Assembly: GCA_017652805.1 (NCBI GenBank)
Contig: JAGCAH010000030.1
Span: forward strand, 1 to 36,042
Origin: Thermoguttaceae bacterium
Lineage (GTDB): Bacteria > Planctomycetota > Planctomycetia > Pirellulales > Thermoguttaceae
Direction of reading: 5' to 3'
DNA length: 36,042 nucleotides
Within the stretch, counting starts at the first letter, position 1; each line of letters opens with the position of its first letter. The notes below the pieces were generated by a model. That model saw only the letters and a program-made list of their open reading frames with translations. It had not been told where the DNA came from and did no database searches. Both the position numbers and the translations under genes were made by a program. This document shows positions 5,267 to 25,066 of this stretch, in pieces.

Positions 5267-6889
<1,623 letters not shown>

Positions 6890-7269: not shown

Positions 7270-7397
7270 CTGATCAACTCCTCAAACTAAACGTTTCTCA
7301 CTTGCGGCCGGATGACAGTTTTGTCCCGACCGAACCGTATCAACTCTACCTGTTGCAAAATTCGTGCCAAAGCGGCCCGCCCGCCCCCGTGAAAAGG

Positions 7398-10535: not shown

Positions 10536-12095
10536 CTAATCTTCGTACCCGATGAGATACTGGCTGACATTCGGCATCTTGAGCTTCTTGATCGCCTTGT
10601 TTTCAATCTGACGAACCCGCTCGCGCGAGACCTGAAAGATCTTCCCGACGTCTTCGAGGGTATACTGATGACCGTCCCCCACGCCATACCGGAGACGGAT
10701 CACTTCCCGTTCGCGGTACCCGAGTTTTCGCAGCGCCTCGTTGATCCGGTGGCGGCGGTCGTTGAATTCTGCGCTGTCGACCGGATTTTCGGCGTTCGTG
10801 TCGGGGAACAGATCGCCGCAGGTGCTGTCCTCATTGTTGCCGACCGGACGGTCGAAGCTGATGGTGGGATGGTCGACCTGCTCAATCTGGCGGACTTCGT
10901 CGACCGACATCCCGACGGCAAGCGCGGTCTCTTCGACCGTCGGCTGTCGGCCGGTCTTCTGCTGTAAATCGGATTTCACCCGGCGAACCTTGGCGGTCGT
11001 TTCGGCCATGTGAACCGGAACGCGGACCGTTCGGCTCTGGTCGGAGAGCGCGCGCGAAATCGCCTGACGGATCCACCAGGTGGCGTAGGTACAGAACTTG
11101 TTCCCGCGGCGGTATTCGAACTTTTCGACCGCGCGCATCAGGCCGCCGTTCCCTTCCTGAATCAGGTCCAAAAAGGGAAGTCCGCGGTGTCGGTACTTCT
11201 TCGCGATTGAGACAACCAGGCGCAGATTTCCCTCGGAGAGATGTCTTTTCGCCTCGCAATACTCGTCATAGGAGCGCGAAAGAGTACGCACACGATGACG
11301 CAGACTCACGGGCGTCTCGCGGGTGAGACGGAGAATATTCCGAAATTCCAGAAGAAGATCGGCGCGTTTCCTTTCGGGAAGGGAACCCCGTTCTCCACCG
11401 AAGAGGAGCGTGTGAAGCTCGTCGATCCGGCAGCTGAAAGATTTCAGCGTTTCGGCCATCTCTTCGATCAGTTTCATCTGAAGACCGAGTTCGTCGATCA
11501 GACGCGCGCCGCGTCGGCTCCGCCGCACAAAATCGTCCCACGCCCGCTTTTTTTCCTCCGCTCCGTGTCGGCGGCTGGTCGCGATTTGATAATCGCGTTT
11601 GTTCTCGCCGAGGATTTTGTCAAGGGTCGAGATATTCGCCAGAAGACGCATCCGCGCGTCCTCTTTGGAACACCCCCAGTCGCTCACCCTGACGACTTTG
11701 TCGGACAACTTTTCTTCCGAGGCCACGCGGCGAAGAAGGTTCGTAAAATTGTTCAGGACGTAGCCCGACTCCAGCGTCACGAGACGGAACTTCCGACGAG
11801 ACTGGTCGATCCGCCGGCTGTGCCGGATTTCCTCTTCGCGCGCCAGGAGGGGAATCGCCCCGATCTGAGCCAGATAGACCTTAACGGGATCGCCGTCCGC
11901 CGGGGCGGACGAATCATCTTCGGCCGCGATCAATTCGAGCGAGGCAGCGTCGTCAGCAAGCAGAGCGTCCCCGCCCGCCGCGTCCCCCTCTTCGTTTTCC
12001 GAATCATAGGGGAGCGGACCATCGGAGATACCGCGATCCTCGTCGCCGTATCCGAAGCGGTCGTCTTCTTCCTGATAATACTCAGAGCTCACCAA
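10536..12095 (-). CDS. RpoD-like sigma-70 factor, paralogue A
   Basis: Promoter-recognition subunit of RNA polymerase, 519 aa. Seen: acidic N-terminus (1-67), region 1.2 [16 protein letters not shown] (69-84), a long non-conserved helical stretch (about 100-280), region 2 from [17 protein letters not shown] with the DNA-melting/-10 segment [12 protein letters not shown] (336-347), region 3 (about 362-440), and region 4.2 helix-turn-helix [20 protein letters not shown] (479-498). It aligns without gaps over its whole length to the next gene upstream (12359-13918). The segment [16 protein letters not shown] has Gly where most primary sigmas have Ile or Ala. The start is TTG at 12095, or GTG one codon later; the TTG gives the same length as the paralogue. 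A promoter is at 12186-12214. It could be a second vegetative sigma or an alternative one with overlapping specificity. Confidence 0.93.
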
Positions 12096-12358: not shown

Positions 12359-13918
12359 TCAGTCGATAAAGCCGACAAGCCTCTGGCTCCGCATCGGCTG
12401 CTGGAGCTTTTTGAGCGCTTTCGCCTCAATCTGACGAATGCGCTCGCGCGTGACGCGGAAGATGTGGCCAACCTCTTCGAGTGTGTAGCTGTAGCCGTCC
12501 CCCAAACCGTAACGCAGACGGATAATCTCGCGCTCGCGATAACCAAGCGATTTGAGGGCACCCTGGATCTCGCGCCGGAGCGCTTCCTGGGAAGCGCCGA
12601 GCGCCGGGGACTCGGCGGCACCGTCGGGGAGCAGATCGCCGAAATGGCTGTCTTCGCTGTTACCGACCGGCCGGTCAAGACTGATCGGATAGCGGTTCAT
12701 CGCCTCAATGCGGCGGACCTCGTCGGCCGACATGTCGGCGTCGCGGGCAACCTCTTCGAGCGTCGGCTCGCGGCCGGTCCGCTGGGTCAGCTCGCGTTTG
12801 ACGTTCCGGGTTTTGGTCAGCGTCTCGACCATGTGAACCGGAATACGGATCGTCCGGCTCTGATCGGCGACCGCGCGCGAAATCGCCTGACGAATCCACC
12901 AGGTGGCGTAGGTGCAGAACTTGAACCCGCGGCGGTATTCGAATTTGTCGACCGCGCGCATCAGGCCCGCGTTCCCTTCCTGAATCAGGTCGAGGAAACT
13001 CAGGCCGCGGTTGCGGTACTTCTTTGCGATCGAAACGACCAGACGCAAATTCCCTTCGGAAAGCCCCTGTTTCGCTTCCTGATACTTTTCAAAAATCGAG
13101 CGTAGGGAACGGACGCGGTTACGCAGACTCGTCGGAGACTCCTGAGTGGTACGGAGAATGTTCCGGAACTCTTCGGCCCAATGCGCCCGTTCATGAAGAG
13201 GACGGCCGGCGGCTTTATGCTCGGCGATCCAGTTCTGGAGTTCGTCGACACGCGCACTGAACTTTTCGAGCGTCTCGATCATCCCCTCAATCCGCTGCGT
13301 ACGAAGGCCGAGCTCCTCGACCAGACGGACGCCGCGGCGGCGGCGGACACCGAGATTGTGCCATGCCTGAACGCGTTCTTTCTTCGAACGGCGTCGGCTG
13401 GTGGCGACGCGGTAGTCGCGCTGGTTCTGACGAAGGATCGCGTCGAGCGTCATCAGGTTGCTTCGGAAGCGAGCCTGGATCTGACGCTTTTCAAAATCGC
13501 CGTCGCTGACCTGAATGTTGCGGTCAAAAGGAAGTTCCCCGGACGCGATCCGATGAAGGATCTGCGTAGCCGTTCTCAACACGTAGTCGCATTCGAGCAA
13601 CTTGGTGCGAAACTTACGGCGCATCCGTTCGATCTGCTTGGCAAGCATGACCTCGCGCTGACGCGTCAGAAGAGGGATCTCCCCCATTTGGGTCAGATAC
13701 ATACGGACCGGATCGAAAGACTCGCCGGAACCGGTGTCAAGATCGGAATATTCATAACTGCCGTCATCTTCTTCGGCGGCAACACTTTCGATCTCGTCGT
13801 TTTCTTCGTCATCGTCGTCGTCGATGCCCAAAGAAACGCCGTCAATCAGGTCTTCGCTGTCATCGTCGCGAAACCCGTAATCGTCGTCTTGTTCCTGAAA
13901 TGAATCAGAATCGAACAA
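12359..13918 (-). CDS. RpoD-like sigma-70 factor, paralogue B
   Basis: 519 aa with the chosen start. Seen: very acidic N-terminus ([14 protein letters not shown]), region 1.2 [16 protein letters not shown] starting at residue 69, region 2 with [19 protein letters not shown] and [19 protein letters not shown], region 3, and region 4.2 [20 protein letters not shown]. The frame opens at a GTG at 13933, but GGAGG lies 8 bases before the TTG at 13918. That start makes the protein exactly as long as paralogue A, with Gln8, Glu9, Asp11, Asp12 and Gly15 in register. The promoter (14026-14054) is strong and is preceded by operator-like repeats. Its closer match to the primary-sigma consensus ([12 protein letters not shown]) suggests that this copy may be the housekeeping one; that is inference. 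Confidence 0.94.
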
Positions 13919-14025
13919 AGTCAATACCTCCACTGTTTACAGAGTAAACATAACCTATTCGGCTGTGATCTTACGCCGACCCCCGCCGCCGGACCGGACA
14001 GTAACAGCCGAGGCTCCCTCTAACT

Positions 14026-14770: not shown

Positions 14771-15493
14771 TCACTCCAGCGGCGGGGGATTTCCGTCATT
14801 TCGGTTTCCCGAGGTGATCTTCCGGGCAAACCGTTCGGAAATCAGACGAAACGCCTCTTCCTGGGCGCTAAATTTGACTTCGGACGTTTTCATTTCAGAT
14901 CGAAGCCAATCGACCAGAGCGCCGTTAAAATTACACGCCATCGCGTTTTCGAAAAGATCAACCATTTCGGGAAGTTCGATATCAAGAGACGAGGATCCGT
15001 CTTCGAGACGCGTGATATGAAGCGCTTTAACGATGTTTTGCGTCTCTTTCCCCTCAACCCCTTTGAGTGTCACCACATCAATCCGTAGACCCGCGCCGTT
15101 GGGGGTCTCGAGCCATTGGTCGAGCGACTTGCCGCCGAAAGTGATATCGAGCGTCGAAAGGCACTGCTGCTCGTTCCGCACGTCCGGTTTCGTCTCGATG
15201 ACGTAGATCGAATCGAGCTTATCGCCGCAGAAATCGGCGAGGTCTCGAAGGAAATCGTCAATCCGAAAGACAAAGAGCGCGCTGCTCTGGTTCCCCAGGC
15301 GGAGAACCAACGTCTGAAGACCCCTTTCGACGTCCGAATCGATCAGCGCCACGTCGAGCCCGCCCAGGTATGACTGGACGCGGTCAATCGACTCGTTCGG
15401 CGCAATGCGGTTCATTCGATTCAGATGATCGAAGATCACCTCATTGACCCGACGGCTGAAAGTATCGGTTCGGCGTTTTCTTTCGACGGCCAT
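14771..15493 (-). CDS. Uncharacterised 240-aa protein
   Basis: I do not recognise it. It has no signal peptide and no membrane helix. It begins with a basic segment (MAVERKRRTDTFSRRVNEV), continues with alternating strands and helices (LGGLDVALIDSDVERGLQTL, SALFVFRIDDFLRDLADFC, DSIYVIETKPD) and ends in an acidic then Pro-rich tail. A cytoplasmic alpha/beta protein is the most that can be said. The ATG at 15493 has GGGAG about 10 bases upstream. It starts 41 bases after the stop of the FlgG-like gene on the same strand, with no terminator between, so the two are probably co-transcribed. Transcription would end at 14397. Confidence 0.75.
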   Translation of the reverse strand: MAVERKRRTDTFSRRVNEVIFDHLNRMNRIAPNESIDRVQSYLGGLDVALIDSDVERGLQTLVLRLGNQSSALFVFRIDDFLRDLADFCGDKLDSIYVIETKPDVRNEQQCLSTLDITFGGKSLDQWLETPNGAGLRIDVVTLKGVEGKETQNIVKALHITRLEDGSSSLDIELPEMVDLFENAMACNFNGALVDWLRSEMKTSEVKFSAQEEAFRLISERFARKITSGNRNDGNPPPLE

Positions 15494-15534: not shown

Positions 15535-16560
15535 CTATTGGTTTTCCCGGTTTTCCGCAAGAGGAGATCCCGTCGCCTGTTTCAGAGAGCTCAGGAGCAG
15601 ATCAAGACGGGCGTTGGAGTTTTCGAGCGATCTCGGAGTGATCAGCGCGCGCCGTTCATGCGGAGGGTTAATGGGCGAAGCGACCCCCGACAATTCGGTC
15701 GGACGGAAAAGGACGCCGTCGTCCGACTCCAGAAACTCGGGATTGGAAAACCGGGCGAGAGGATAAGCTTCGTTCGGCGCGGCGACGGCGCCCGAATCCA
15801 GGAAATACCGCTGGCCGTTCCATTCCAAATAGAGCGACCCGCCGGGATTGGCGATAAAATTCCCGGCACGGGAATAGACAGTTTCCGCGGTTCCCTCTCT
15901 TCTCAGGATGAAGAAAACTCCGCCGTCCTCACCGAGCGCCGCGTCAAACGGCCGACCGGTAAAGAGAATTTCACCCGGCGTCATATCAAAAACGCCGCCG
16001 GTGATCAGACAGCGATACTCCCCGTCGTCGCGTCGGGCGAAAAGAAACGGGCGCCGCGCTTTCGCGCCCGGCAGCCGCTCACAGGCCAGCGCGGGGGGAA
16101 TCGCCTCTTCGAACATTTCGCGTAAATCAGCCGTCTGCCGCGTCATGAGAAAATCCGAAACAGGTTCCAATTTCTCCCTGGGATCGGTCTGGTCAAAGCG
16201 GAGTTCCGGCGCGGTTTCGGCAAGCACCTCGTCGAATGCCCGGTCGAATGACTGATAAAACGAATCGGAATTCAGGACTCCCCCGCCTCCGTCGGACGAT
16301 GGCGCGGGGTTTGCGGACGAGGGCGTTCCCGCCTTTTCATCGGAAGGAACCGCGGGCCTTTCGGCGGAAGGCTCCGTCAGATTTTCAGCGGGACGTTCCG
16401 CAGACGTCTCGGCGGCCGAAGGAGGGTCGGTTGAGATCGCCGTCCCCTCCTCGGGGAAAAACATCGGCCGGTCGGCGGGGATCAGCGCCGGGTTCGCGGC
16501 ATAGAGAAACGCCGCCGCCACAGTCTGGACAATAACAACCGACAGAACGGAATATCTCAT
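15535..16560 (-). CDS. Membrane-anchored or secreted FlgF/FlgG-like (flagellar hook-basal-body family) protein
   Basis: 341 aa. Seen: a signal-peptide-like N-terminus (MRYSVLSVVIVQTVAAAFLY), a Pro/Ser/Glu linker (40-95, with SAERPAENLTEP and SAERPAVPS as imperfect repeats), and a C-terminal part matching the flagellar rod/hook pattern: TPGEILFTGRPFDAALGEDG (194-213), VYSRAGNF (228-235), ARFSNPEFLESDDGVLFRP (269-287) and LENSNARLDLLLSSL (312-326). In FlgF/FlgG the corresponding motifs are TGNPLDLAI.GDGFF, YTRAGNF, RFANP..L...G..LF and LE.SNV. The N-terminal rod segment of true FlgG (Flg_bb_rod) is missing and is replaced by the Sec-type signal. No other flagellar gene is nearby. The similarity is strong by pattern; the role is unknown. 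Confidence 0.7.
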   Translation of the reverse strand: MRYSVLSVVIVQTVAAAFLYAANPALIPADRPMFFPEEGTAISTDPPSAAETSAERPAENLTEPSAERPAVPSDEKAGTPSSANPAPSSDGGGGVLNSDSFYQSFDRAFDEVLAETAPELRFDQTDPREKLEPVSDFLMTRQTADLREMFEEAIPPALACERLPGAKARRPFLFARRDDGEYRCLITGGVFDMTPGEILFTGRPFDAALGEDGGVFFILRREGTAETVYSRAGNFIANPGGSLYLEWNGQRYFLDSGAVAAPNEAYPLARFSNPEFLESDDGVLFRPTELSGVASPINPPHERRALITPRSLENSNARLDLLLSSLKQATGSPLAENRENQ

Positions 16561-21731: not shown

Positions 21732-23174
21732 CTAACCCGTCTTTTTCGCCATATCCTGTAATTGATTCAGTTTATTATAGAGGGTTTTCAGACTGATGCC
21801 AAGCTCCTCCGCCGCTTTCGCCTTATTCCCGCCGTTTCGGCGCAGAGCGCTGACGATCGCTTCATTTTCAAGGTCACGAAGAGTCTTGCCCGAATCGAAC
21901 GCCATCAGTTCGTCGGCGTCCTCGTCGGAGGCGGCGATCGCCTTGGCCGACGCCGCCCGGCTCGTTTTCGAAAGGGGAACCGCGGGTTTTTCGAGAAACT
22001 GATGCGGGAGCGCCTCCGGACCGGCCGGAAACCGTTCGGTCAGAATCAGCGCGTGTTCGACGACGTTCGCCAGCTGACGAATATTCCCGGGCCAGTCGAA
22101 CTGACGAAGGAGCTCGAACGCTTCGGGGGTGAAAATGTCGTCGATCGATTTAAGACCCGCGCCTTTCTTGTAGCGGCTCGTCAAATGGACGATCAGCTCG
22201 GGAAGATCTTCGAGCCGCTGACGCAGCGGCGGGAGTTGTATTTCAAACGTATTGATTCGGAACCAGAGGTCCTGACGGAACCCCCCCTGGGCGACCATCT
22301 CTTCAAGGTTGCGGAGCGTTGCGCAGATCACACGCACGTCGCAGATGCGAGATGAGTTCTCGCCGATCCGGCGCACCTCGCCGCTTTCGAGAAACCGGAG
22401 AAGTTTCGACTGCACCCCTTTGGGAAGCTCTCCGATTTCGTCCAGGAAGAGGGTCCCCTTATCGGCCACTTCGAGGAGCCCGACGCGCTGCGAGTCGGCG
22501 CCGGTAAAACTCCCTTTTTTATGGCCGAAGAGTTCGCTTTCGATCAGGTTTTCGGGGAGCGCCCCGCAGTTGACCGCCACGAACGGCTTTTCGGCGCGGG
22601 CGCTCTTGGCGTGAACCTCGCGCGCGGCGAGTTCCTTTCCGGTTCCCGTCTCACCCAGAATCACGACCGTCGAATTGGTCGGAGCGATCTTATCAATCAA
22701 TTGGTGAACGCGTTTCATCGCGCCCGACTCGCCGACCAGACGCTGCTCGACCTCGACCCGTTCGAGCCGGGGTCTGCGGTCGGAAACCTTTTGAGTCAGT
22801 TTTTTCTCTTCGGCGATCCGGTTTAAGACGTCCTCAATCTCCGCCAGCCGGCACGGTTTGGTCAGGTAGTCGAAGATCTTTTCGCGAATCCCGGCGACGG
22901 CCGACTGGAGCGATCCTTTCCCGGTCAGAATGACCGCCTTGGCCGTCGGGTTCATGGTGTGCGCCGCCTGAATCACTTCCAAACCGCTGGCGCCCGGCAT
23001 ATCAAGATCGAGCAGAAGGACGTCGAATTCTTCTTTCTTGAGCGCTTCGATCGCCGAAAGACCGTCGGAACAGACCGTCACCGTATGTCCCATCGCGGAA
23101 ATTTCGAGGCGGATCAGCTGCTGAAGCGACTTTTCGTCGTCGGCGAAAAGAATTTTGAGACCGTCAGTGGACAT
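21732..23174 (-). CDS. NtrC-family sigma-54-dependent response regulator
   Basis: 480 aa. Seen: receiver domain (1-120) with acidic pocket ADDE, phosphoacceptor Asp56 in LLLDLDMPGASG, and Lys106 in LTKP; AAA+ sigma-54 activation domain (about 145-375) with Walker A GETGTGK (174-180), GSFTGA loop (221-226), Walker B LFLDEIGE (242-249) and the sensor segment WPGNIRQLANVVE; and a Fis-type helix-turn-helix at the C-terminus (NGGNKAKAAEELGISLKTLY). GSFTGA differs from the usual GAFTGA in one residue of the sigma-54-contacting loop. The frame opens at 23279, but the ATG at 23174 begins the receiver and has AAGGA about 12 bases upstream. Own promoter at 23306-23334; partner of the kinase upstream; coupled to the acyltransferase gene. 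Confidence 0.94.
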   Translation of the reverse strand: MSTDGLKILFADDEKSLQQLIRLEISAMGHTVTVCSDGLSAIEALKKEEFDVLLLDLDMPGASGLEVIQAAHTMNPTAKAVILTGKGSLQSAVAGIREKIFDYLTKPCRLAEIEDVLNRIAEEKKLTQKVSDRRPRLERVEVEQRLVGESGAMKRVHQLIDKIAPTNSTVVILGETGTGKELAAREVHAKSARAEKPFVAVNCGALPENLIESELFGHKKGSFTGADSQRVGLLEVADKGTLFLDEIGELPKGVQSKLLRFLESGEVRRIGENSSRICDVRVICATLRNLEEMVAQGGFRQDLWFRINTFEIQLPPLRQRLEDLPELIVHLTSRYKKGAGLKSIDDIFTPEAFELLRQFDWPGNIRQLANVVEHALILTERFPAGPEALPHQFLEKPAVPLSKTSRAASAKAIAASDEDADELMAFDSGKTLRDLENEAIVSALRRNGGNKAKAAEELGISLKTLYNKLNQLQDMAKKTG

Positions 23175-23305
23175 AAAAACGCGGATTCCTTCCAAGAGGA
23201 TACGCGGAAGCGGCCGCGCATCCTTTTCGCACTTGAATACCCGCCCTCGGCGTACCGGGAAGAATCGTCCGGCGCGCAAAAAGAAGGGGCGGAAATCACC
23301 TCTCC

Positions 23306-23393: not shown

Positions 23394-25004
23394 TCAACTG
23401 ACCGGCAGTTCGATTCGGAACGAAGCTCCCATCCCTTTTCCGGGACTCGACGCGTAGATGTGCCCTTTGTGTCCCAGGACGATCCGATTGGCAATCGCCA
23501 GCCCCAGACCGGTTCCGACCCCGGGATCTTTGGTCGTAAAGAACGGCTCGAAGATGTTTTCGAGCGTGGCCGGGTCGATTCCCCCGCCGTTGTCCGAAAC
23601 GACCAGAATCGCTAAATCCCGCTGACGCCGAGCCGAAATCGTCACCAGTCCGTCGTCGCCGATCGAGTCCAGCGCGTTGGTCAGCAGATTCAGGATTACC
23701 TGTTTGATCTCCTGCGGGTTCACCATCGCGTAGACCGGTCCCCCGGGGAGGATCTCGATCCGTTTATGGCGGTACCGGCTCTGGGTCAGGGCCATCTCGA
23801 CCATACTCTCGGCAATCCCGCGCAGTTCGGCGCGCGTCTTTTCCCCGCGGCCGGTCCGTGAAAAATCGAGAAGCTTTTCGGTGATTCCCTTACACCGGAA
23901 CGCCTCGTCCTGAATCATCTCGACATACTTCTGCACGACGGCCAGTTCGGCGCTGATCTGTTGGGGATCCTTCTGCCGATCGAGGAGCGCCCGAATCCGG
24001 CGGGGGAGCGACTCGGCGCTCATCGCGATCGAAGCGAGCGGGTTATTGATCTCGTGCGCCACCCCGGCGGCGAGGAACCCGACGCTCGCCAGGCGGTCGC
24101 TCCGGATCACCTCTTCGGAGCGGCGGCGGACCTGATCGTCCAGATCGTCCCGGATCCCTTCGAACCGTTCGGTCATCTGGTTGAGGGCGCCGGCCAATTC
24201 GTCGAACTCGTCGTTGGTCGCCATATCGATCCGGTAGTCGAAATCCCCCTGCGCCACGCGCCGCGATCCGGTCACGAGAGTTCGAAGCGGCCGGAAGATC
24301 CAGATATAGGCGAAATGAATCAGGAGGATCGTCAGAACGATCGACGCGGCGCTCGTCGAAATCAGTGTTACACGGATATACTTGTACTGCGAAAGGACGC
24401 GGTCCGAAAAACCGGCCAGTTCCCGATGCAGACCGCTCGGGAGGCTTTCGGTCAGGCTTTGGACCTCTCCCAGCTGACGATCGACCCTGTCGATCACCTC
24501 GTCGTCGGTGATCCAGCGGTAATGGGAGGTGACGTCGCGGATCCCGTCGAGAAGGGATCGAATCTCCTCGATCGCGCGGAGTTCCGACGAAAGAACCGAT
24601 CCCGAATCGGCGGCGTGGGGACGCTGATAGATCAGTTTTTCATACTCGTCGAGCTGCTGCCGGTAATCGGAAAGCTTTTTGAGAAAGAGGGAATACGCTT
24701 CCAGAGTCGGCTGTTTCGAGAAATCGAAAAGCTCCATCCGCCGCATCTGCTGTTCGACCCGGTTTTTGACCTGCTGTTCGGCCATGCGGGTTCCCTTGAT
24801 CTGGCTGACCTGCATCCGCAGGGCGCCGATCGACGTTCCCAGACGCGCGGCGGCGGGGAGCTCCTGCGAGCGCCGGCTGATATCGTAGACCAGACTCCGA
24901 AAATGCCGGAGGGTATAGACTTCGGTCGCGATCAACACGATCAGAAGGACAAGCACAATCGATGTCCATATCCGGATTCGGGATTTGAGCGACCAGCGTT
25001 TCAT
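23394..25004 (-). CDS. Sensor histidine kinase, partner of the NtrC-like regulator
   Basis: 536 aa, inner-membrane kinase. Seen: TM1 (10-30), extracytoplasmic helical sensor region (31-205), TM2 (212-236), HAMP (237-290), dimerisation helix with phosphoacceptor His317 in [20 protein letters not shown], and ATPase domain with N box [11 protein letters not shown] (Asn443), DNGGGID, and [11 protein letters not shown]. The NtrB/ZraS-like HEINNP box and the neighbouring NtrC-type regulator fit a sigma-54 two-component system. The signal sensed is not evident. The frame opens at 25058; the ATG at 25004 has GGAAG 9 bases upstream and directly precedes TM1. A terminator hairpin (25026-25066) lies just before it. 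Confidence 0.93.
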
Positions 25005-25025
25005 CGTAAAAATCTTCCGTCTGTC

Positions 25026-25066
25026 AAAAAAAACCGCGGTGTGTGCCGATTCTAGCACAACACCGC
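25026..25066 (-). terminator. Rho-independent terminator of the RND operon
   Basis: Minus strand arm 25055-25066 pairs with 25036-25046 (GCGGTG...CACCGC core, one bulge) around an 8-base loop and is followed, after CGG, by T8. It is 36 bases after the RND stop and only about 20 bases before the kinase ATG. Confidence 0.75.

What the first reader, a model, noticed from the sequence alone, without database searches (positions are those of the whole stretch)
15535..16560. FlgF/FlgG-like protein with a Sec-type signal in place of the rod N-terminus
The signature patterns of the hook-basal-body family (TGRPFDAAL, YSRAGNF, RFSNPEFLES, LENSNARLD) are clear. The N-terminal rod helix needed for assembly is absent and replaced by a signal/anchor and a Pro/Ser/Glu linker. 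No other flagellar gene is near. It may be a co-opted envelope protein, or a rod-like protein exported by Sec.
Basis: partly seen in the sequence, partly recalled or inferred. Interest (0 to 1): 0.55.

Follow-up and report, generated by a model that had tools for sequence, protein, structure and literature searches.

The report
Rod protein rerouted through Sec export
A planctomycete that seems to have lost its flagellum keeps a relative of a flagellar rod protein that now carries an ordinary secretion signal, so a flagellar building block has apparently been reused as an envelope protein.

Summary
Window 15535-16560 (minus strand, 341 aa) has a Sec-type signal, an Ala/Ser/Pro-rich linker and a divergent FlgE/F/G-type domain (TIGR03506 E=3e-12 but below its curated cut-off; solved FlgF E=5e-7; no Pfam hit). 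One correction: the N-terminal rod segment is probably not absent but degenerate and displaced to about residues 137-170. Orthologs occur in 4 of 6 other genomes of the genus, and beside thyX in a second genus. Better-preserved relatives in other planctomycetes join a Sec signal, apparent lipobox or membrane anchor to an almost intact FlgG; five of those genomes also encode ordinary FlgG. A tree suggests at least two origins. All 7 genus genomes lack detectable FlgE/F/G D1 domains yet keep FlhA, FliF and an FlhB without its C-terminal domain; the window's genome also has FliH, FliI, FliO, FliP and FliR, with FliF fused to a FliG middle domain. The protein is under purifying selection. Best reading: a rod-derived, Sec-exported envelope protein working outside a flagellar rod; its exact role is not shown. 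Ten full-text searches of an open-access library showed no description of it. New variant of a known kind.

The parts
15535..16560 (-). ORF of the Sec-leadered FlgF/FlgG-like protein, 341 aa
   Evidence: orthologs in 4 of 6 other genus genomes, 51-81% identity
16495..16560 (-). N-terminal Sec-type signal (about residues 1-22; exact cleavage site not determined)
   Evidence: hydrophobic stretch kept in 5 of 5 orthologs; no signal-peptide predictor was available
16273..16494 (-). Ala/Ser/Pro/Glu-rich linker (about residues 23-96), variable in length
   Evidence: signal plus linker dN/dS about 0.31-0.49
16162..16272 (-). conserved short segment (about residues 97-133, F..F..AFDEVLAE.APEL) before the rod-like domain; a similar F..DE segment is seen by eye in two other genera
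   Evidence: dN/dS about 0.08-0.18
16012..16161 (-). degenerate N-terminal rod (D0-like) segment, about residues 134-183
   Evidence: profile alignment to FlgF from its residue 4
15661..16011 (-). FlgE/F/G D1-like domain, about residues 184-300 (TIGR03506 best stretch 191-244; TIGR02488 best stretch 267-317)
   Evidence: weak fold support
15535..15660 (-). C-terminal segment with LENSNARLD motif and a shortened C-terminal helix region, plus stop codon
16668..17552 (-). thyX, immediate upstream neighbour; same order in a second genus
   Evidence: Pfam Thy1 E=5e-49; 13 of 16 loci of genus g52, the other 3 close to a contig end
14771..15493 (-). 240-aa unknown protein, downstream neighbour, found in the same 4 other genus genomes
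21732..23279 (-). NtrC-type sigma-54 response regulator; homologs lie beside or near Sec-FlgG in G022 and G107
23394..25058 (-). HAMP histidine kinase paired with that regulator

Best explanation
The gene descends from a duplicated flagellar rod gene (FlgG-like) that gained a Sec leader and a low-complexity linker in front of its old N-terminus and lost or shortened the end of its C-terminal D0 helix. The protein is made with a signal peptide, crosses the inner membrane by Sec instead of the flagellar type III channel, and acts in the periplasm or envelope through its D1-type beta domain, not as an ordinary rod subunit. In this genus it outlived the rod and hook. Shown: homology, leader-like N-terminus, conservation, purifying selection, related Sec-leadered proteins in other genera, no detectable FlgE/F/G D1 domain in the genus. 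Inferred: Sec use, periplasmic place, loss of rod assembly. Not shown: the binding partner. My best guess is a structural or adaptor protein that binds another envelope protein through D1 and the short F..DE segment.
For: FlgE/F/G homology. Orthologs in 4 of 6 other genus genomes; gene order HK-RR-acyltransferase-trpS-pfkB-SIS-thyX-SecFlgG-240aa-sigma70 kept as far as the held DNA reaches in all 4. Degenerate relatives beside thyX in a second genus, 13 of 16 loci. Selection: core dN/dS 0.06-0.28, F..DE segment 0.08-0.18. Better-preserved relatives with Sec, lipobox-like or membrane-anchor leaders: L089, L092, L077, L035, L037, L093, L100, L107, L109, L110; all 10 relatives given to NCBIfam match FlgG or FlgEFG models, and their best TIGR02488 stretches end by position 239 of 259. 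Ordinary FlgG loci coexist in 5 of those genomes: G011, G015, G022, G046, G109. No PF22692 match in 7 of 7 genus genomes although FlhA is in 7 of 7. Tree: 15 of 16 Sec rows lie on one side of a branch (100/99.8), and one, L037, pairs with its own genome's FlgG (100/100).
Against: No signal-peptide predictor, expression or localisation data. Fold models are poor (mean pLDDT 40.6 and 49.6) and support the fold only weakly (best Z 4.0; no significant Foldseek match). Two of 7 genus genomes, G001 and G005, show no copy by the searches. Grouping of the degenerate rows on the tree may be helped by long branches. The genus MAGs are 73-91% complete.
Confidence: 0.72

Rival explanations
1. It is the rod surrogate or exit sleeve of a flagellum-derived, non-motile type III secretion machine: the genus keeps the export core, and this Sec-delivered subunit assembles on it from the periplasmic side.
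For: FlhA, FliF and FlhB in 7 of 7 genus genomes, FliH, FliI, FliO, FliP and FliR in the window's genome; FliF fused to a FliG middle domain in the two P0001-bearing genomes examined (G000, G003), FlhB cut short; this is the only FlgF/G-like protein found in the window's genome. A degenerate N-terminal segment and a C-terminal helix region remain.
Against: G001 and G005 have FlhA, FliF and FlhB and no copy; G008, G010, G017, G018, G020, G023, G026, G029, G031 and G037 have FlhA but neither a PF22692 hit nor a copy. G107 has a copy but no FlhA hit and no other PF22692 hit. G011, G015, G022, G046 and G109 carry it beside ordinary FlgG.
Confidence: 0.13
2. It is a periplasmic partner of the neighbouring histidine kinase and sigma-54 regulator, tuning an envelope stress or surface response.
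For: Homologous HK and RR genes lie directly beside Sec-FlgG in G022 and, with one TPR gene between, in G107; the window's pair aligns over its full length, sensor region included (E 2e-17 and 3e-16), and lies about 5 kb upstream.
Against: Of 27 fetched stretches screened, only those two hold both the HK and the RR; one more (L130) holds a partial, weaker RR match; flanks were often short. No convincing -24/-12 site at the gene: 7 matches in the window against 7.4 expected, the nearest (16300, 2 mismatches) being inside it on the other strand.
Confidence: 0.07
3. It is a decaying relic of a lost flagellum without function.
For: It is the least conserved protein of its gene block (66-78% identity against 73-96% for its neighbours in three close genomes), and its rod motifs are degraded.
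Against: Intact ORF in 5 of 5 genus genomes that have it, core dN/dS 0.06-0.28, and conserved relatives in 16 genomes of a second genus.
Confidence: 0.05
4. The likeness to FlgE/F/G is convergence or composition bias.
For: No Pfam hit, short aligned region, poor model.
Against: Agreement of NCBIfam, PDB profile search and profile-profile comparison and a graded series of relatives up to nearly intact FlgG.
Confidence: 0.03

Closest known systems
FlgG/FlgF rod proteins (TIGR02488, TIGR02490, TIGR03506)
   Same: D1-type domain, the TGRP.DAAL, YSRAGNF and LE.SN signatures, traces of the N-terminal segment and a C-terminal helix region
   Different: Sec leader plus linker before the domain, degenerate NLAN..GFK motif, shortened C-terminus, no rod/hook D1 domain detected in the genome, scores far under the curated cut-offs
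Sec-leadered FlgG-like proteins of other planctomycetes found here (L089, L092, L077, L035, L037, L093, L100, L107-L110)
   Same: leader or anchor, low-complexity linker, FlgG core, shortened C-terminal region
   Different: most keep the rod core almost intact; five of their genomes also have ordinary FlgG
FlgH, FlgI and FlgA, flagellar parts that use Sec (recalled, from no call)
   Same: flagellum-related proteins exported by Sec
   Different: unrelated folds; they form or help form the L and P rings and were not tested here
Partial flagellar sets in non-motile bacteria: Lysobacter enzymogenes export genes used in twitching (PMC7277350, title and abstract start seen in a search listing) and FliF, FlhA, FliI in Chlamydia pneumoniae (PMC2830194, abstract start seen)
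   Same: flagellar export genes kept without flagella
   Different: no Sec-leadered rod protein is mentioned in what I saw of them

Membership tests
FlgE/F/G flagellar axial family (TIGR03506) | significant profile match of the D1 region | tested here: met
   E=3e-12, all 5 orthologs match
FlgE/F/G flagellar axial family (TIGR03506) | score above the curated cut-off | tested here: not met
   46.9 bits against 70.25; no Pfam hit
FlgG rod protein (TIGR02488) | score above the curated cut-off | tested here: not met
   26.2 bits against 252.75
FlgE/F/G flagellar axial family (TIGR03506) | N-terminal D0 helix with NLAN..GFK motif at the very start of the protein (as seen in ordinary FlgG and FlgF) | tested here: not met
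   segment displaced to about residue 137 and degenerate
FlgE/F/G flagellar axial family (TIGR03506) | full-length C-terminal D0 helix | tested here: inconclusive
   looks shortened; best TIGR02488 stretch of P0001 ends at 222 of 259, of 10 relatives by 239
FlgE/F/G flagellar axial family (TIGR03506) | export by the flagellar type III channel without a cleaved signal | not testable with these tools
   the sequence has a Sec-like leader
FlgE/F/G flagellar axial family (TIGR03506) | encoded in a genome with the other rod and hook proteins | tested here: not met
   PF22692 in 0 of 7 genus genomes, PF06429 absent from the own genome; FlgB, FlgC, FlgD, FliE and flagellin not searched; drafts incomplete
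Solved FlgG/FlgF fold | structural match of the D1 domain | tested here: inconclusive
   all 10 rows shown are FlgG, FlgF or FlgE entries but Z<=4.0 on a pLDDT 49.6 model

The most novel reading that the evidence does not exclude
A flagellum that lost rod, hook, filament and the motor's torque domain but kept its export gate now works as a secretion machine, and it is fitted from outside with a rod subunit delivered by Sec: an axial protein assembled without travelling through the channel.
Probability: 0.12. Interest if true: 0.85.

Novelty: new variant of a known kind. Interest (0 to 1): 0.58.

Why it matters
Axial proteins are, by established knowledge, substrates of the flagellar type III channel. 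A set of rod-protein relatives with Sec or lipoprotein-like leaders, probably arisen at least twice, one lineage outliving the rod, gives a natural experiment on what a rod subunit can do outside the rod. It also points to many planctomycetes that keep flagellar export genes without a detectable rod or hook, an open question that can be tested.

Tried and rejected
Structure prediction twice with the only 4 sequences I took the rule to allow: low confidence; Foldseek gave no significant match (best E 0.4, a FlgG entry). The viral fold library was not searched. A sigma-54 promoter scan gave no more than chance. The L008 hit was dropped: it seems to lie in a frame overlapping a better ORF on the other strand. 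Many hits were ordinary FlgG or FlgF, and 6 of the 10 long-frame hits fetched were ordinary FlgG in frames open upstream. The phylum search mostly returned ordinary FlgG, so it gives no count of Sec forms. FliQ was not found with Pfam in the proteins given; small ORFs were not scanned. Considered and rejected: pseudogene, chance motif match. Single origin of all 16 Sec rows: held-together tree 39.8 log units worse, p-AU 0.045, borderline.

Literature: ten searches of the open PMC library; listings and abstract starts seen. Passages only of PMC3459982, PMC12199754, PMC7203096, PMC1586193 and PMC2754498. None of what I saw describes a Sec-leadered FlgG or an export core kept without rod in planctomycetes; most subscription papers are not held.

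Full report
What was checked. The ORF at window 15535-16560 lies on the minus strand, starts with ATG and encodes 341 aa. The window is contig C196 of a 2.68 Mb, 87% complete assembly. The nearest named relatives are three MAGs titled 'uncultured planctomycete', isolates RUG11210, RUG14216 and RUG695; that RUG stands for a rumen collection is recalled.

Homology. Pfam gives no match even at E<=10. NCBIfam gives TIGR03506 (FlgE/F/G) E=3e-12, flgF E=4.8e-8 and FlgG E=5.2e-6 for this protein, and all 5 orthologs scanned match. All are under the curated cut-offs. A profile of the 5 orthologs finds solved FlgF at 4.8e-7 and FlgE at 2.4e-6, and aligns to three planctomycete FlgF proteins at 5.8e-9. 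The FlgF alignment begins at profile position 117, about residue 137 of the protein, against FlgF residue 4. Two AlphaFold models are poor. Re-alignment of the second one to its Foldseek candidates shows only FlgG, FlgF and FlgE entries in its 10 rows, at Z 2.6-4.0, which is weak.

Conservation. Orthologs are present in 4 of 6 other genomes of the genus, at 81, 72, 71 and 51% identity, and not found in G001 and G005. The order HK-RR-acyltransferase-trpS-pfkB-SIS-thyX-SecFlgG-240aa-sigma70 is kept in all four as far as the held DNA reaches. dN/dS is 0.06-0.28 in the rod-like core, 0.08-0.18 in the short segment before it and about 0.31-0.49 in signal plus linker. Pairs with the most distant ortholog are near saturation at synonymous sites.

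A wider set. Searching the genus's family (119 genomes) with the ortholog profile gave matches in 62, a mixture of ordinary flagellar proteins and new ones. Reading the frames showed proteins with a Sec-like leader and linker before a FlgG-type domain: L089 (G011), L092 (G107), L077 (G046), L093 (G109), L069 (G064), L073, L086 and L090 (genus g52), L035 (G022) and L037 (G028, another family) with lipobox-like leaders, and L100 (G015). In a family of the same class, L107, L108 and L110 have a hydrophobic anchor and long Pro-rich linker, and L109 is similar. NCBIfam matches all 10 of those tested to FlgG or FlgEFG models; the FlgG score runs from 250 bits, just under the cut-off, down to 29 bits, and the best FlgG stretch ends by position 239 of 259 in all. 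In genus g52, tblastn found the copy in all 16 loci read, with thyX directly upstream in 13; the other 3 lie close to a contig end. This supports orthology with the window gene despite low similarity.

Tree. On 43 rows, 15 of the 16 Sec rows are on one side of a branch (100/99.8). L037 instead pairs with its own genome's FlgG, L027 (100/100). Holding all 16 together is 39.8 log units worse, p-AU 0.045. So at least two origins are likely. Some rows have long branches, and grouping of the degenerate rows is not secure.

Flagellum status. PF22692 (FlgE/F/G D1) is absent in 7 of 7 genus genomes and present in 22 of 40 relatives; in the family 69 of 119 match, 65 over the cut-off, and some of these hits are the Sec copies themselves. 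FlhA is present in 39 of those 40 and in 115 of 119, so many genomes keep FlhA with no detected rod or hook D1. In the genus FlhB stops at profile position 223-243 of 335 and FliF is divergent. In the window's genome FliF is fused to a FliG middle domain, with FliH and FliI beside it and FliO, FliP, FliR and FlhB together elsewhere. In G001, without the Sec gene, FliF and a FliG with only the middle domain detected are separate genes. The torque domain FliG_C was not detected in those proteins; that it makes torque is recalled.

Is it tied to that core? G001 and G005 have FlhA, FliF and FlhB and no copy. G008, G010, G017, G018, G020, G023, G026, G029, G031 and G037 have FlhA without a PF22692 hit and without a copy. 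G107 has a copy, no FlhA hit, and its only PF22692 hit is the copy itself. G011, G015, G022, G046 and G109 have a copy beside ordinary FlgG loci. This argues against strict dependence on either the rod or the core, within the limits of draft genomes.

Verdict. The protein is best read as a rod-derived, Sec-exported envelope protein working outside a flagellar rod. It should not be filed as FlgG or FlgF, since curated cut-offs, N-terminal position and genome context are not met. Its partner and task are unknown.

Noticed in passing
L048:8053-10164, L052:6222-10682, L053:8041-11131 (own genome contigs C199, C23, C126): A type III export core (FlhA; FliF fused to a FliG middle domain, FliH, FliI; FliO, FliP, FliR, FlhB without C-terminal domain) in a genome without detected FlgE/F/G D1 domains.
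   Followed up: partly
family and order searches: FlhA is nearly universal (115 of 119 family genomes) while PF22692 is found in 69 of 119, so rod- and hook-less export cores may be common in these planctomycetes.
   Followed up: partly
L054:3563-17350 (G037): Compact cluster FliF-FliG-FliH-FliI, FliO-FliP-FliR-FlhB and FlhA in a genome without a PF22692 hit.
   Followed up: no
G107 (L098): Sec-FlgG present although no FlhA and no other PF22692 domain was found in this 92% complete assembly; a TPR protein and an HK/RR pair lie upstream.
   Followed up: partly
L037 and L027 (G028): Apparently recent FlgG duplicate with a lipobox-like leader, pairing 100/100 with the genome's ordinary FlgG.
   Followed up: partly
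window 10536-12095 and 12359-13933, minus strand: Two adjacent complete sigma-70 factors.
   Followed up: no
window 7354-7369, minus strand: Exact match to the -24/-12 sigma-54 consensus about 470 bp upstream of a chaperonin (Cpn60) gene at 5267-6883.
   Followed up: no
window 14771-15493, minus strand: 240-aa protein of no known family that follows the Sec-FlgG gene and is found in the same 5 genomes of the genus.
   Followed up: partly
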